From Syntrophobacterales bacterium (GTDB taxonomy: Bacteria; Desulfobacterota; Syntrophia; Syntrophales; UBA8958), in contig JAGPFL010000011.1 of the NCBI GenBank assembly GCA_018056545.1, positions 1-37,000 of the forward strand: a DNA stretch of 37,000 bases. The letters run 5' to 3'. The translations under genes and the position numbers were made by a program. Under the pieces are notes generated by a model. It saw only the letters and a list, made by a program, of their open reading frames with translations. It made no database searches and was not told the origin of the DNA. Positions 148 to 35,025 of the stretch are shown one piece after another; the stretch's first letter is position 1, and every line of letters begins with the position of its first letter.

Positions 148-177
148 TGTTTAGCTTAACAATTCCCGCGCTGTCAA
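148..177 (-). promoter_or_regulatory. Possible promoter for the EF-G-like gene
   Basis: On the minus strand a perfect -35 box TTGACA (177-172) is followed after 18 bases by a poor -10 candidate, TAAACA (153-148). It lies about 50 bases upstream of the EF-G-like start codon. Only the -35 box is convincing. Confidence 0.3.
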
Positions 178-203
178 GACAATTTTCGTCCCTAATAATG
201 ATG

Positions 204-232
204 TTGACAGAAAACTTGGTAATAAGTATAAG
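204..232 (+). promoter_or_regulatory. Sigma-70 type promoter of the biotin carboxylase operon
   Basis: TTGACA (204-209), a 17-base spacer and TATAAG (227-232) form a near-consensus housekeeping promoter. It is the best promoter match in the window. Transcription would start near 239, leaving a leader of about 38 bases before the ATG at 277. It lies in the divergent region shared with the EF-G-like gene. Confidence 0.75.
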
Positions 233-276
233 TGCCGACTTAAACTGAAAACTGTACTCTGTGGGAAAGGCTATCA

Positions 277-1737
277 ATGACGAAGAAGAACCGAAAAATT
301 AAGAAGGTGCTTATCGCCAACCGGGGAGAGATCGCCCTGCGGATTATGCGCACCGTCCAGGAGATGTCCCTGGACGTGGTGGTCATCTACGAAAAACCCG
401 ATTCCGACGCCTATTATGTTCGACAGGCCGACGAAGCCATCTTGATCGGCGAAGGTCCCCGCAAGGATTATCTCGACATCGAGAAGATCGTCTGGGCGGC
501 GAAGAAGACCGGCGCCGACGCCATCCATCCCGGTTACGGTTTCCTGGCGGAAAACCCTGATTTCTCCGCCGCGTGCGAGAAGGCGGGGATAATCTTCATC
601 GGCCCGCCGCCCCAGGTCATCCGCGATCTGGGCAACAAGGTGGTGGCCCGCAAAATAATGGAAAAGGCGCGCATTCCCTTCATCCCCGGAACCTCCGACA
701 TCCCCAAAGGCGGCGACGGCGTCAACGAGGCCTTTTCCTTCGCCCGGACCTGCGGTTATCCCGTAATGCTCAAGGCCTCCTGCGGCGGCGGCGGTAGGGG
801 CATCCGCAAGGTCAAAGACGAAGCGGATCTCATGGTCCAGCTTCCCCTGGCCCGTTCGGAATCATTGTCGGCCTTCAAGGACGACAGCATCTACATGGAG
901 AAGTGCATCGAATCCCCTCGTCATGTGGAGATCCAGATTCTGGCCGACAGTCACGGCAACATCATACACCTGGGGTCCCGGGATTGCTCCATCCAGCGGC
1001 GTCATCAGAAGCTGCTGGAGATCGCCCCGGCGGACCTGCCCGAAGAGGTGCTGGCGGCGATGTATGAATGTGCCGTCAATGCCGCCCGGGAAGCGGGTTA
1101 CGTCAATGCCGGTACGGTGGAGTTCCTCGTGGACTCCCGGACCAATGAGTTCTGGTTCATGGAAATGAACACCCGTCTCCAGGTGGAACATACCGTCACC
1201 GAAGAGCTTACGGGGATCGATATCGTCCGGGAGCAGATCCGCATCGCCGAAGGGGGGGTCCTGGACATCCCCCGGGAAAGGGTCCGCCTCTTCGGCAAGG
1301 CCATCCAGGTCCGTATCAACGCCGAAGACCCAAAGAACAATTTCATGCCCGAAGGGGGAAAGCGGGTGGAGGTTTATCAGTCGCCCGGCGGGCCGGGGGT
1401 CCGGCTGGACGGCGCCGTATACCAGGGGTACCGCATCCCCACGGATTACGATTCCCTCCTAGTGAAGATGACCGTCCGAGGATACAACTGGGAACAGACC
1501 CTACAGCGCCTGAAGCGTTCCCTCCACGGTTTCATCATCGTCGGCCCCAAGACGACCATCCCCTTTTATCTGTCGATCTGCGGGGAGAAGGATTTTCAGG
1601 CCGGCAGGTTCGATACGGGATACATCGACACCCACCCGGAATTATTCGATTACCCCGAAGCGGAGCGGGAGATCGCCAAATTGAGCAAACTCATCGCGGA
1701 GATTCACGCCCGGAAGATAAACCGGCATGCCTATTGA
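277..1737 (+). CDS. Biotin carboxylase subunit (AccC / pyruvate carboxylase subunit A type)
   Basis: This 486-residue protein is full length for a free-standing biotin carboxylase. It uses ATP and bicarbonate to carboxylate the biotin of a carrier domain. Visible are the N-terminal domain start KKVLIANRGEIALRI (9-23), HPGYGFLAEN (84-93), the ATP-grasp glycine loop GGGGRG (170-175), RDCSIQRRHQK (235-245) and the catalytic MEMNTRLQVEH (295-305). The next gene overlaps it by 11 bases and encodes a carboxyltransferase fused to a biotin carrier, so the two probably form one two-subunit carboxylase, as in two-subunit pyruvate carboxylases. A true AccC role in acetyl-CoA carboxylase is possible, but no accB, accA or accD lies nearby. 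A strong promoter sits upstream (204-232) and a GGGAAAGG ribosome site at 263-270. I leave the symbol open because the acceptor substrate is not certain. Confidence 0.9.
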   Translation: MTKKNRKIKKVLIANRGEIALRIMRTVQEMSLDVVVIYEKPDSDAYYVRQADEAILIGEGPRKDYLDIEKIVWAAKKTGADAIHPGYGFLAENPDFSAACEKAGIIFIGPPPQVIRDLGNKVVARKIMEKARIPFIPGTSDIPKGGDGVNEAFSFARTCGYPVMLKASCGGGGRGIRKVKDEADLMVQLPLARSESLSAFKDDSIYMEKCIESPRHVEIQILADSHGNIIHLGSRDCSIQRRHQKLLEIAPADLPEEVLAAMYECAVNAAREAGYVNAGTVEFLVDSRTNEFWFMEMNTRLQVEHTVTEELTGIDIVREQIRIAEGGVLDIPRERVRLFGKAIQVRINAEDPKNNFMPEGGKRVEVYQSPGGPGVRLDGAVYQGYRIPTDYDSLLVKMTVRGYNWEQTLQRLKRSLHGFIIVGPKTTIPFYLSICGEKDFQAGRFDTGYIDTHPELFDYPEAEREIAKLSKLIAEIHARKINRHAY

Positions 1738-31516: not shown

Positions 31517-32665
31517 TCACTCCTGAAGGATATATTTGTTGCCCGCCGTCCGGCGGATCAAGCCCCGCAGTTCGAGCTGCAGGAGCAGGGCGAGGACCTC
31601 CGGGGCATTCAGGCCGGTGGCGGCGATCAATTCGTCTATGTGGCGGGGCTGCCGAGAGAGCGCCGCCAGCAGCGCCCGTTCACTGGCGCTCATGGTTTTT
31701 TCTGAAGCGGTAACGCTGCTTTCCCGTTTCATTCCCGCCGTCGTAACTTTTCCGGATGTTTCCGTGGCGGCGTTCGTCTTGGAGAGCTGGGGGCGAATCT
31801 CGTCGAGGATATCATGGACATTTTCCACCAGTTTCGCCCCTTCTTTGATCAGCCTGTTCGTTCCCCGGGACCCGGCCGCATCGATCCCGCCGGGGACGGC
31901 AAAGACCTCGCGGCCCTGCTCCAGGGCGATTCGGGCGGTTATCAGGGAGCCGCTCTTGTCGGTTGCCTCCACAACGACCACCCCCAGAGCCATACCGCTG
32001 ATGATGCGATTCCGGGAGGGAAAGTGCGGGGCGTTAGGCGGGGTTCCCATGGCATATTCCGTCACCACGGCGCCGGAGCCGGCAATCTCGTGATAGAGCC
32101 CTTCGTTTTCCGGCGGATAGACGACATCTATTCCCGACCCCAGGACCGCCACGGTTTTCCCCTTGACGGACAGGGCGCCGCGATGGGCGGCGGTATCGAT
32201 TCCCCTGGCCATGCCGCTGATCACGACCGCCCCCTGGAGAGTAAGTTCCCGGGACAGTCTCTCGGTGGTGAATCTACCGTAGGCGCTGGCCGCTCTCGAT
32301 CCCACCATGGCGATATACATATCGGCGGCAGGAAGCTCCCCCTTTACATAAAGAAGAAACGGGCAGTCATAGATATGGAGCAGCCGTTTCGGAAAACGGG
32401 GGTCCTGACAGGTAACGGCAACGGCCCCGCATCTTTCCATCCGGTCTATTTCCTCGTCGATCCGCTGCCAGTCTTGAAAATCCTTGATGCCCGCCGCCGT
32501 TTTGGTGCCGATTCCCTCCACCGTGCACAGCAGGGACAGAGGCGTCCGGAATATTCGTTCCGGGGTTCCGAAACTGCGAAGAAGATTTCTTACCCCGATA
32601 TTTCCCAAACCCTCCACGAATTTCAGGGCCAACCAGTATTTAATGTTCTCCGGCGCCTGCGCCAT
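31517..32665 (-). CDS. dprA: DNA-processing protein DprA
   Basis: DprA binds incoming single-stranded DNA and loads RecA during natural transformation. It is also found in bacteria not known to be competent. The protein of 382 residues has an N-terminal SAM-like region (YWLALKFVEGLGNIGVRNLL), the Rossmann core (AMVGSRAASAYGR, VVISGMARGIDTAAHRGAL, VLGSGIDVVYPPEN, HFPSRNRIISGMA) and a C-terminal winged-helix domain (about the last 60 residues). I choose the ATG at 32665-32663, preceded by AGGGA at good spacing; an ATG ten codons upstream (32695) has no ribosome site at a normal distance. It heads the dprA-topA-trmFO operon. The GC-rich shadow frame on the other strand is not a gene. Confidence 0.95.
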   Translation of the reverse strand: MAQAPENIKYWLALKFVEGLGNIGVRNLLRSFGTPERIFRTPLSLLCTVEGIGTKTAAGIKDFQDWQRIDEEIDRMERCGAVAVTCQDPRFPKRLLHIYDCPFLLYVKGELPAADMYIAMVGSRAASAYGRFTTERLSRELTLQGAVVISGMARGIDTAAHRGALSVKGKTVAVLGSGIDVVYPPENEGLYHEIAGSGAVVTEYAMGTPPNAPHFPSRNRIISGMALGVVVVEATDKSGSLITARIALEQGREVFAVPGGIDAAGSRGTNRLIKEGAKLVENVHDILDEIRPQLSKTNAATETSGKVTTAGMKRESSVTASEKTMSASERALLAALSRQPRHIDELIAATGLNAPEVLALLLQLELRGLIRRTAGNKYILQE

Positions 32666-32784
32666 ATAAATTCCCTGCTTTTTGACTGACGACATTAAGG
32701 AACAACGTTCCCCCGCCTGCCAAATGCCGACTTAGCCTGGTTGAGGATTGGCGGCCGTCACGATTTGGCCGAAAAACGTTGCAC

Positions 32785-32812: not shown

Positions 32813-32871
32813 GATTTTTCCTGCCAAGGCAAGACAGCGGAAATTTCTTCCCGTTCTTTGTCAAATATTCA

Positions 32872-32898
32872 TTGTCATGGATGTTCATTTGCTATATT
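32872..32898 (+). promoter_or_regulatory. Extended -10 promoter of the secreted repeat protein gene
   Basis: TTGTCA (32872-32877) and TATATT (32893-32898), preceded by TGC, match an extended -10 promoter with a short 15-base spacer. The start site would be near 32905, about 32 bases before the ATG at 32937. Confidence 0.5.
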
Positions 32899-32936: not shown

Positions 32937-34580
32937 ATGAGGGTAGGATACCTGTTGTTCTATAGTATATTGTTCTGGGTGACCTTTTTCCCCCCCGTCC
33001 TGGAGGCTTCCCGGGCTGGGGAAGTGCTGTTGAACCAGGAAAGGGTCAGTTTGGGCGACATCGGCACCGGAAGATTGAAGAAAGCGCAAGCCATTATGAC
33101 CTATGCCACCGCCGCAAAGAGGATCTGGACGATCGGTTTGCCCTCCGGATGGAACTGCAAGCCGGAAGAGGATTTCTCCGGAACGATCACGCACCGCCAC
33201 CCCTCCCGGATACAGTTGGCCATGAAATCCTCTTTTGCCCCGATGGCGGCGAACGGGCATCTTCAGCAGCAATACAATGTCCAGCTCCATCTGGAGTTCG
33301 AGAACAAACATATTGTCTGTCAGCGATACCTCCCACCGGGACCGCATCGGGAAGGGATCAATTTCCGTATCGGCGGCGAAGAGAAAAATATCGAAATATT
33401 CTATAATGTTCTCGATTATCCTTCGGAACCGGTTTTGTCCGTCTACCCCCAGCGTTTGGATTTCGGGCGCCTGGAACCCAATCAGCAGACCATGAGGAAA
33501 ATAGAGATCACCAACCGGGGGCGCCAGCCGCTCAAATGGAGGATAGAACCGATTTCTCTTACAACGGAGAAAGTATCAGATTTCGTTGTAGGAACCTATC
33601 ATTCCTTCTTTCTTCCCGAGGCGTCGGGCACGGGCGCTTACCGACCGGCGGTGGCCAGAGCTGCCCTGATGGAGTTTTCAGGGCACTGGGGGGAGATGGA
33701 CGGTTATCCCGAAGCGCACGAAAAAGCCGTCCTGAAGTATCATTACACCGGCGGTGGGGTGATCGTTTATTACTGGAAATCACCGGCGGGAAAAACCATG
33801 AACGTCTATCTCGACAATCATCCGATAGGCCAGGTGGAGACCTACAGCGACAATTTTACCCCGGCCGAGTACCGCCTGCCGGAGACGACGATACGCGGTG
33901 CCCATACCCTGATGCTGGTCAATCAGCAGGGCAGGGTGGTGTTGGAAGGGGTGAAAATCCCAGGTAAAGGTTTGATCCGGGACCAAGGGAAATGGCTACG
34001 GATATTTCCCGAATCAGGCGCGACGAACAGAGAGGTTGATTATCTCCATCTGGCGGTGGATACAAAAAATCTGCGCCCCGGGGTACATGGACAGTACTTT
34101 CAATTGTCCTCCAACGGCGGCACGCAGCCTTTGGAGATCTACGTCGAGGTGGCGTCGGAAGTAGCGGCCAAGATACTTGATGTCTATCGCTACCACAAAG
34201 GCGATGATCTCTTCTTCACCACCAATCCTCCGGGAGAGGCCCGGTTAGCCAACGGAGGCGACTATCTAAAGGAGGGGATAGCCTTTCGACTATACAGTCC
34301 CGGGACGCCGGGAACCACGGATTTTTACCGCTGGTACAACCAGCGGGCTCAGCGGCACTATTACTCCTGTGAATTAAATGCCGATGGGAAACTGAATCGG
34401 GACTTTGTCCGGGAAGGGGCAATCGGCAACATTGCCACCATCCGCCTGGTAAATTCGCGTCCCCTATACCGGTGGCATCATAGCGGATCGGGACAATATT
34501 TTTTCACCACCGACCCCCGGGGTGAAGGGCGCACCAGGAAAGGTTATAAATACGACGGCATCGTCGGGTATGTCCGCTGA
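32937..34580 (+). CDS. Secreted mosaic protein: Ig-like segments, sugar-binding-like domain and three C-terminal aromatic repeats
   Basis: I do not recognise a named family for the whole 547-residue protein. Residues 1-24 are a Sec signal peptide (MRVGYLLFYSILFWVTF, then a cut near EAS). Residues 165-205 resemble an ASH/HYDIN-like Ig strand set (LSVYPQRLDFGRLEPNQQ, then ITNRGRQPLKW). Residues 240-343 have the pattern of a jelly-roll sugar-binding domain (FSGHWG, YTGGGVIVYYW, NVYLDNHPIGQVETYSD, GAHTLMLVNQ). Residues 350-405 look like a second Ig-like unit. Then come three repeats (about 414-453, 463-500, 510-547) sharing YR[YW]-x(5-9)-FFTT/YYSC and a closing Y-x-x-x-G-I. They resemble the DUF5648-type repeat of surface proteins. 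It is probably periplasmic or surface-bound. The start at 32937 is chosen for the signal peptide; the open frame back to 32748 crosses the promoters. It stands alone with its own promoter, divergent from dprA. Confidence 0.8.
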   Translation: MRVGYLLFYSILFWVTFFPPVLEASRAGEVLLNQERVSLGDIGTGRLKKAQAIMTYATAAKRIWTIGLPSGWNCKPEEDFSGTITHRHPSRIQLAMKSSFAPMAANGHLQQQYNVQLHLEFENKHIVCQRYLPPGPHREGINFRIGGEEKNIEIFYNVLDYPSEPVLSVYPQRLDFGRLEPNQQTMRKIEITNRGRQPLKWRIEPISLTTEKVSDFVVGTYHSFFLPEASGTGAYRPAVARAALMEFSGHWGEMDGYPEAHEKAVLKYHYTGGGVIVYYWKSPAGKTMNVYLDNHPIGQVETYSDNFTPAEYRLPETTIRGAHTLMLVNQQGRVVLEGVKIPGKGLIRDQGKWLRIFPESGATNREVDYLHLAVDTKNLRPGVHGQYFQLSSNGGTQPLEIYVEVASEVAAKILDVYRYHKGDDLFFTTNPPGEARLANGGDYLKEGIAFRLYSPGTPGTTDFYRWYNQRAQRHYYSCELNADGKLNRDFVREGAIGNIATIRLVNSRPLYRWHHSGSGQYFFTTDPRGEGRTRKGYKYDGIVGYVR

Positions 34581-34661: not shown

Positions 34662-34738
<77 letters not shown>

Positions 34739-34746
34739 GTGAATAC

Positions 34747-34824
34747 GGTGGGTGTAGCTCAGCTGGTCAGAGTGCCGGGTTGTGGCCCCGGAGGTCGAGG
34801 GTTCAAATCCCTTCACTCACCCCA
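34747..34824 (+). tRNA. tRNA-His (anticodon GTG)
   Basis: Acceptor GTGGGTG/CACTCAC with an extra 5' G (34747) facing C73 (34821), the hallmark of histidine tRNA. The anticodon loop TTGTGGC on stem CCGGG/CCCGG reads GTG. T loop TTCAAAT and CCA are encoded. It lies 8 bases after tRNA-Arg. Confidence 0.96.
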
Positions 34825-34840
34825 TTGACTGCATGACCAC

Positions 34841-34917
34841 GCGCCTGTAGCTCAGTCGGATAGAGTCGCAGACTTCGAATCTGTTGGTCGTACGTTCGAG
34901 TCGTACCAGGCGCGCCA
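34841..34917 (+). tRNA. tRNA-Arg (anticodon TCG)
   Basis: Acceptor GCGCCTG pairs with CAGGCGC, discriminator G, encoded CCA. The anticodon loop CTTCGAA on stem GCAGA/TCTGT gives TCG, for CGN codons. T stem GTACG/CGTAC is perfect. The D stem GCTC/GAGT has one G-T pair. Its first 15 bases are identical to tRNA-Arg(TCT) in this cluster. Confidence 0.94.
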
Positions 34918-34949
34918 GACATAAAGAGATATGTTCTTTAAGGATTATC

Positions 34950-35025
<76 letters not shown>

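What the first reader, a model, noticed from the sequence alone, without database searches (positions are those of the whole stretch)
32937..34580. Secreted mosaic protein with three aromatic repeats and a sugar-binding-like domain
Among conserved housekeeping genes stands one exported 547-residue protein of unfamiliar architecture. In order it has a signal peptide, an ASH/HYDIN-like Ig segment, a domain with jelly-roll carbohydrate-binding character, a second Ig-like segment and three repeats ending in Y-x-x-x-G-I. The repeats (starts near 414, 463 and 510) share YR-aromatic, then FFTT or YYSC. This layout suggests binding of glycans or surface partners without a visible catalytic centre. It has its own extended -10 promoter and no partner gene.
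Basis: partly seen in the sequence, partly recalled or inferred. Interest (0 to 1): 0.5.

Follow-up and report, generated by a model that had tools for sequence, protein, structure and literature searches.

The report
Conserved secreted sugar-binding-like protein of Syntrophales
The window holds an exported, apparently non-enzymatic protein built from Ig-like and probable sugar-binding modules, which most members of one order of bacteria carry in one copy at the same place in the genome, so it probably serves their cell envelope in a way not yet studied.

Summary
The gene is real (32937-34580, +). The three aromatic repeats are one recognised domain, DUF5648 (62.7 bits, cut-off 25; [quoted passage not shown] The 'second Ig segment' is the second half of an ASH/BACON-like Ig domain into which a CE2_N/CBM-like jelly roll is inserted. 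A further Ig-like sandwich precedes it. No catalytic family passes a cut-off.

It is not a lone oddity. In its order (Syntrophales, named from record titles) 134 of 155 genomes match, 84 of 92 good ones. In a 395-genome phylum sample the 16 listed own-order genomes are the only ones matching along most of its length. It stands divergent from dprA in 71 of 73 loci and before tRNA-Arg(TCT) in 58 of 64. Four genomes of one family lack it cleanly.

Most likely it is an exported lectin-like envelope or matrix protein. Printed work links DUF5648 to O-antigen-targeting toxins; for the CE2 jelly roll the printed evidence is mixed. Ligand, location and role are not shown. New variant of a known kind; moderate interest.

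The parts
32937..34580 (+). whole gene, 547 aa plus stop, exported mosaic protein
   Evidence: homologues in 134 of 155 genomes of the order
32872..32898 (+). putative promoter: TTGTCA and TGCTATATT, hexamers 15 bases apart
   Evidence: TTGTCA block in 7 of 7 aligned sequences; not above chance in the general scan
32937..33017 (+). N-terminal export signal, residues 1-27 (inferred)
   Evidence: crude test passed; pLDDT under 50
33018..33416 (+). first Ig-like beta sandwich, residues about 28-160
   Evidence: model strands; multi-domain ASH-type chains align from residue 28 or 29 to 405-408, with rmsd of 7.7 to 16.8 A; no Pfam match in this protein
33423..33560 (+). N-terminal half of the split ASH/BACON domain, residues 163-208
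33579..33971 (+). inserted CE2_N/CBM-like jelly roll, residues about 215-345
   Evidence: 3nqh Z 13.0 (109 residues, 2.0 A), 2waa Z 12.7 (110 residues, 2.6 A); CE2_N in 36 of 77 members
33972..34160 (+).
34161..34577 (+). DUF5648 domain, residues 409-547; blades near 34167-34313, 34314-34454, 34455-34577
   Evidence: PF18885; own model pLDDT 90.3; highest conservation
31517..32695 (-). dprA, divergent neighbour, fixed in the order
   Evidence: DNA_processg_A 256 bits; 71 of 73 loci
34662..35025 (+). tRNA-Arg(TCT)-His(GTG)-Arg(TCG)-Lys(CTT) cluster behind the gene

Best explanation
It is an exported, non-enzymatic, lectin-like protein of the cell envelope or matrix. Two Ig-like (ASH/BACON) domains form a support or spacer; an inserted jelly roll and a C-terminal three-bladed propeller (DUF5648) offer the binding surfaces, most likely for polysaccharide such as O-antigen, capsule or matrix polymer. 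Shown here: export-type N-terminus by a crude test, domain make-up by profile and predicted fold, no catalytic family above cut-off, single copy, fixed locus, order-wide presence. Inferred: glycan binding, location outside the inner membrane (periplasm or surface undecided), role in envelope or aggregate structure.
For: DUF5648 in 77 of 77 members, the most conserved part (0.68 against 0.42 to 0.58 elsewhere). In print, group 1 BSAP C-terminal domains are DUF5648, three-bladed beta-alpha propellers, and the group holds relatives of three BSAPs that target O-antigen (PMC12853789, section 9 read). DUF5648 is an auxiliary domain of GH70 enzymes (PMC11299179, one passage) and was seen once on a GH25 endolysin (PMC13379245, two passages). 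The DUF5648 model aligns best with C-terminal parts of an aegerolysin-L pore (9uj0, Z 7.8, 3.5 A, 118 residues) and a GH174 fucanase (8jd7, Z 6.7, 3.1 A, 94 residues); the next is Z 2.6. Jelly roll: CE2_N in 36 of 77 members, fold matches to CE2 N-domains and CBM35/36/6; in CjCE2A the mutation W127A in or at the interface of this CBM-like domain raised KM for glucomannan and xylan (PMC2661963, passages). Order-wide.
Against: No ligand was tested. DUF5648 binding is a suggestion in print too. The domain's PDB matches have Z under 8, which the tool says may mean only a common arrangement, and Foldseek gave none at E 0.001. CE2_N is not listed for the window's own protein at E up to 10, and in CtCE2 the mutation Y683A of the same domain changed nothing. 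For BACON, a study cited in PMC12853789 found no binding and proposed a spacer. No polysaccharide gene is conserved beside it.
Confidence: 0.45

Rival explanations
1. It is a protein-binding scaffold of the periplasm or outer membrane. The ASH/BACON domains and the propeller hold an envelope complex together, and the jelly roll is structural.
For: The best fold matches of 163-408 are CEP192 and ciliary chains, and the family profile finds HYDIN and FAP74 chains (E 1.3e-12 to 0.0048); ASH-type domains sit in protein assemblies (general knowledge). A fixed single copy suits a fixed cellular partner.
Against: DUF5648 and the jelly roll belong to groups found on carbohydrate-active enzymes or O-antigen-targeting toxins. 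Apart from dprA, topA and trmFO, no neighbour cluster reached more than 19 of 79 loci, many of which have short flanks.
Confidence: 0.27
2. It is an adhesin for the syntrophic partner: it binds glycans of methanogens or of the mixed aggregate.
For: Found across an order known for syntrophy (recalled), with extra N-terminal BACON_2 or Big_2 domains in some members.
Against: Four genomes of one family, one of them by size taken for the classic syntroph Syntrophus aciditrophicus SB (recalled), lack it. Secretion to the surface was not shown. Adhesins usually vary and move (general knowledge), this gene keeps its place.
Confidence: 0.12
3. It is the receptor-binding part of a secreted antibacterial toxin, as DUF5648 is in BSAPs.
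For: Same C-terminal domain as BSAP group 1; a pore protein is the best fold match of that domain.
Against: MACPF is not among the 12 families listed for the 77 members at E 0.01; near-universal single copy is unlike a toxin.
Confidence: 0.04
4. It belongs to DNA uptake together with its divergent neighbour dprA.
For: Fixed divergent pair.
Against: dprA lies with topA and trmFO, which looks like housekeeping; five genomes keep dprA without the gene.
Confidence: 0.04

Closest known systems
DUF5648 (PF18885), as in group 1 BSAP C-terminal domains and GH70 auxiliary (beta3-alpha)3 domains
   Same: profile match above cut-off; three strand-strand-helix-strand units in the model
   Different: here it ends an Ig/jelly-roll protein without MACPF or GH domain; the second blade bears the stretch EGxIGNIAT, conserved in this family
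CE2 N-terminal jelly roll (PF17996) and CBM6/35/36-type jelly rolls
   Same: fold, and CE2_N profile in 36 of 77 members
   Different: no esterase domain follows; inserted into an Ig domain; window protein itself not reached by the profile
BACON_2 / HYDIN-type ASH Ig domains (PF19190, PF22544, PF14874)
   Same: fold (Z 13.9 to CEP192 domain 7) and weak profile matches in many members
   Different: split by an insertion of about 130 residues; below cut-offs in the window protein

Membership tests
DUF5648 (PF18885) | profile score above the curated cut-off | tested here: met
   62.7 bits against 25, profile 6-133 of 134; 77 of 77 members at E 0.01
DUF5648 (PF18885) | three beta-alpha blades | tested here: met
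   predicted model only, pLDDT 90.3, compared with descriptions in PMC12853789 and PMC11299179
DUF5648 (PF18885) | glycan binding | not testable with these tools
   suggested, not shown for the domain alone, in what I read
BACON_2 / ASH Ig domain | profile score above cut-off | tested here: not met
   BACON_2 13.0 bits intact, 24.2 joined without the insert, cut-off 25; PapD-like 20 against 27
BACON_2 / ASH Ig domain | fold | tested here: met
   6fvi Z 13.9, 1.9 A, 107 residues, model 163..408
CE2 carbohydrate esterase | N-terminal jelly roll (CE2_N) | tested here: inconclusive
   fold matches; profile in 36 of 77 members at E 0.01 but not in the window protein
CE2 carbohydrate esterase | SGNH hydrolase domain | tested here: not met
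   no such family in the lists; what follows the jelly roll is ASH and DUF5648
BSAP toxins | MACPF domain | tested here: not met
   not among the 12 families listed for 77 members
BSAP toxins | lipidated N-terminal cysteine | tested here: inconclusive
   lipobox-like pattern near a possible start in 5 of 78 members, not in the window; an earlier, narrower look found 0 of 78

The most novel reading that the evidence does not exclude
This is a signature protein of the order Syntrophales: an ancestral, single-copy envelope lectin used for building or recognising the syntrophic aggregate, which went unstudied because the cultured model Syntrophus lacks it.
Probability: 0.12. Interest if true: 0.7.

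Novelty: new variant of a known kind. Interest (0 to 1): 0.38.

Why it matters
A gene kept in one copy at one place through most of an order, with only binding or spacer modules recognised, points to an unknown constant feature of the envelope of these bacteria. It also offers a natural case for finding what DUF5648 binds, since here the domain stands without a recognised enzyme or toxin and is the most conserved part. Syntrophales matter for methane formation, and factors that hold their consortia together are poorly known (general knowledge).

Tried and rejected
Rejected: a phage or plasmid origin (no match at E 1e-5 among 50,697 phage and 72,556 plasmid records; fixed position). Rejected: an enzyme. 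Rejected as main reading: MACPF-type toxin.

Led nowhere: the first genome scan with the single protein found nothing and was repeated with alignment A1. Profiles of the jelly roll and of DUF5648 found no convincing PDB relative (the single one, bL33 at E 0.45, looks like chance). The viral structure library gave phage GH5, BACON and tail proteins, mostly with large rmsd or short alignments. Whether the gene was gained after the gene-less family split off, or lost there, is open: that family is a clade in an unresolved comb, and holding all other own-order rows together is not rejected (p-AU 0.179). In 28 loci of other orders the stretch upstream of dprA (425 to 1513 bases) held no tRNA-Arg(TCT), two held tRNA-Asp and tRNA-Val, so an older empty site could not be shown. 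Paper searches: for Syntrophales lectins the first 10 of 380 listed titles did not concern the order; for a jelly roll inside BACON/ASH, 7 listed, none fits by title; DUF5648, 3 papers; the paper on the aegerolysin-L pore was not found.

Full report
The observation. Window 32937-34580 (+) encodes 547 residues. Pfam places residues 417-546 in DUF5648, PF18885, with E 5.6e-17 and 62.7 bits against a cut-off of 25. The four other matches listed are below cut-off, the best being PapD-like at 165-225 with 20 bits. NCBIfam lists one family, below cut-off. With the single sequence, PDB gives only HYDIN chains at E 0.3 or worse. Pairwise, repeats 1-3 and 2-3 exceed all of 2000 shuffles, whereas repeats 1-2 do not stand out (274 of 2000). 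The domain alone is modelled with pLDDT 90.3 as three strand-strand-helix-strand units, the helix of the second being only three residues.

Architecture. The full model from 77 sequences has mean pLDDT 83.8 and pTM 0.61, so domains are reliable and their mutual arrangement is not. A single ASH domain of CEP192 aligns to model residues 163..408 with 107 residues at 1.9 A and Z 13.9, while CE2 N-terminal domains and CBM6/35/36 modules align to about 215-345 with Z of about 10 to 13. The jelly roll is therefore read as an insertion into the ASH domain after its LKW strand. Sequence agrees in part: with residues 206-350 left out, the two halves match BACON_2 from 2 to 86 of 94 at 24.2 bits, just under the cut-off of 25, and no half alone is listed for BACON_2; the intact protein reaches 13.0 bits over 2-37. 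The same test on two homologues gave 20.5 bits over 2-79 and 16.2 bits over 2-89. Against it, the PapD-like profile gains nothing from joining (23.5 for the first half, 23.0 joined), and one second half matches PF13004 weakly at 14.6 bits. A further Ig-like sandwich lies at about 28-160 in the model. It has no Pfam match in the window and in 2 of 3 homologues, and 18.8 bits to BACON_2 in the third.

Family. Of 77 members, 77 match DUF5648, 54 the HYDIN-type Ig, 45 BACON_2 and 36 CE2_N at E 0.01. The family profile also finds HYDIN and FAP74 chains in PDB, E 1.3e-12 to 0.0048. Six long members were scanned: BACON_2 passes its cut-off in five (L111, L113, L104, L056, L117) and Big_2 in two (L113, L117); in L093 both stay below. 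No hydrolase, MACPF or other catalytic or pore family is in the lists; Thioredoxin_10, a C-terminal domain, matches 4 of 77 weakly. Mean conservation rises from 0.42 in the first Ig domain to 0.68 in DUF5648. By a crude test on real start codons 75 of 78 members have a signal-like N-terminus, and a lipobox-like pattern occurs near a possible start in 5 of 78, not in the window.

Distribution. The 80 loci kept of 91 relatives carry titles such as Syntrophales, Syntrophaceae, Smithella, Syntrophus and Syntrophobacterales, and many only Deltaproteobacteria or wider; the order name Syntrophales is my inference from these. In the order, 134 of 155 genomes match with the single sequence, 84 of 92 among good ones, and 137 of 155 with the profile. 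In a phylum sample of 395 genomes 43 match; the 16 listed as own genus, family or order are the only ones whose match spans most of the profile, and the other 27 match only in pieces of 135 positions or fewer. At most three candidates per genome were scored there. With the single sequence, 2 other-order genomes of a sample of 198 match, in DUF5648 alone. DUF5648 occurs in 37 of 41 relatives, on the contig of this gene in each, apart from an extra 43-residue piece in G027.

The misses. The eight good genomes without a match are G028, G044, G055, G029, G082, G108, G123 and G031. In G029, G082 and G108 dprA was not found either, so the locus is probably not assembled. In G031 a contig ends inside a 408-residue frame divergent from dprA that resembles the protein (tblastn E 9e-5 in this short stretch), but the profile search did not list it at E 0.001, so it is uncertain. 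G028, G044, G055 and also the lower-quality G109 are of one family in which 333 to 472 bases lie between dprA and tRNA-Arg(TCT), with no frame of 70 residues there except one in L127 that runs into dprA; G123 has 162 bases there. G044 is one contig of 3,179,300 bases, which I recall as the size of Syntrophus aciditrophicus SB. Whether that family lost the gene or never had it is not resolved.

Locus. Of loci with more than 1400 bases upstream, 71 of 73 have dprA on the other strand upstream, 182 to 2932 bases from the match start, median 349. Of loci with at least 300 bases downstream, 58 of 64 have tRNA-Arg(TCT) within 600 bases. topA and trmFO follow dprA, clustered in 65 and 58 of 79 loci; their families are confirmed in the window, though GIDA does not tell TrmFO from MnmG. 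No other neighbour cluster reaches more than 19 of 79 loci; that one is a short minus-strand frame lying over the tRNA genes in L039. A block with TTGTCA lies upstream in 7 of 7 aligned sequences, window included, although the general scan found no excess of promoters.

Function. No solved relative of DUF5648 was found by sequence. Its model aligns best with C-terminal regions of an aegerolysin-L pore (Z 7.8, 3.5 A, 118 residues) and a GH174 fucanase (Z 6.7, 3.1 A, 94 residues), clearly above the next at 2.6, but under the level at which the tool advises trust, and Foldseek alone gave no match at E 0.001. [quoted passage not shown] the direct proof that a C-terminal domain drives receptor binding is for BSAP-1, an orphan outside that group (PMC12853789, abstract and section 9). 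The same section reports that a BACON domain showed no binding in another study and may be a spacer. DUF5648 is also an auxiliary domain of GH70 enzymes with aromatic residues in grooves between subdomains (PMC11299179, one passage), and occurs once on an endolysin (PMC13379245, passages). The CE2 jelly roll affects polysaccharide KM in CjCE2A but not in CtCE2 (PMC2661963, passages). Together these make an exported glycan-binding protein the most likely reading, a little under one half. That is inference from domains: no ligand, location or phenotype is shown.

Verdict. The gene is real and conserved, and no work on it was found: DUF5648 is named in 3 papers of the library, none about Syntrophales by its title and the passages read. 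Its modules are known; their combination, with a jelly roll inside an ASH domain and a locus fixed in the order, is a new variant. Interest is moderate.

Noticed in passing
32863-32898: A block upstream of the gene (AAATAT..ATTGTCA..GA.G...ATTT, with changes in some rows) is conserved in the seven sequences aligned, more than the rest of the spacer; it may be a regulated promoter.
   Followed up: partly
34662-35025: The tRNA cluster Arg(TCT)-His(GTG)-Arg(TCG)-Lys(CTT) keeps its order behind the gene in many loci of the order.
   Followed up: yes
L111, L113, L104, L056, L117, L093: Long family members (about 880-1040 aa) carry extra N-terminal Ig-type domains (BACON_2, Big_2), as if a stalk had been lengthened.
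   Followed up: partly
   Followed up: no
DUF5648 model mec60ea816c10 (window 34161-34577): It resembles C-terminal domains of an aegerolysin-L pore (9uj0) and a GH174 fucanase (8jd7), a possible unrecognised link between accessory domains.
   Followed up: partly
L130 2543-3520: Genome G123, which lacks the gene, has a shorter and diverged DprA (325 aa).
   Followed up: no
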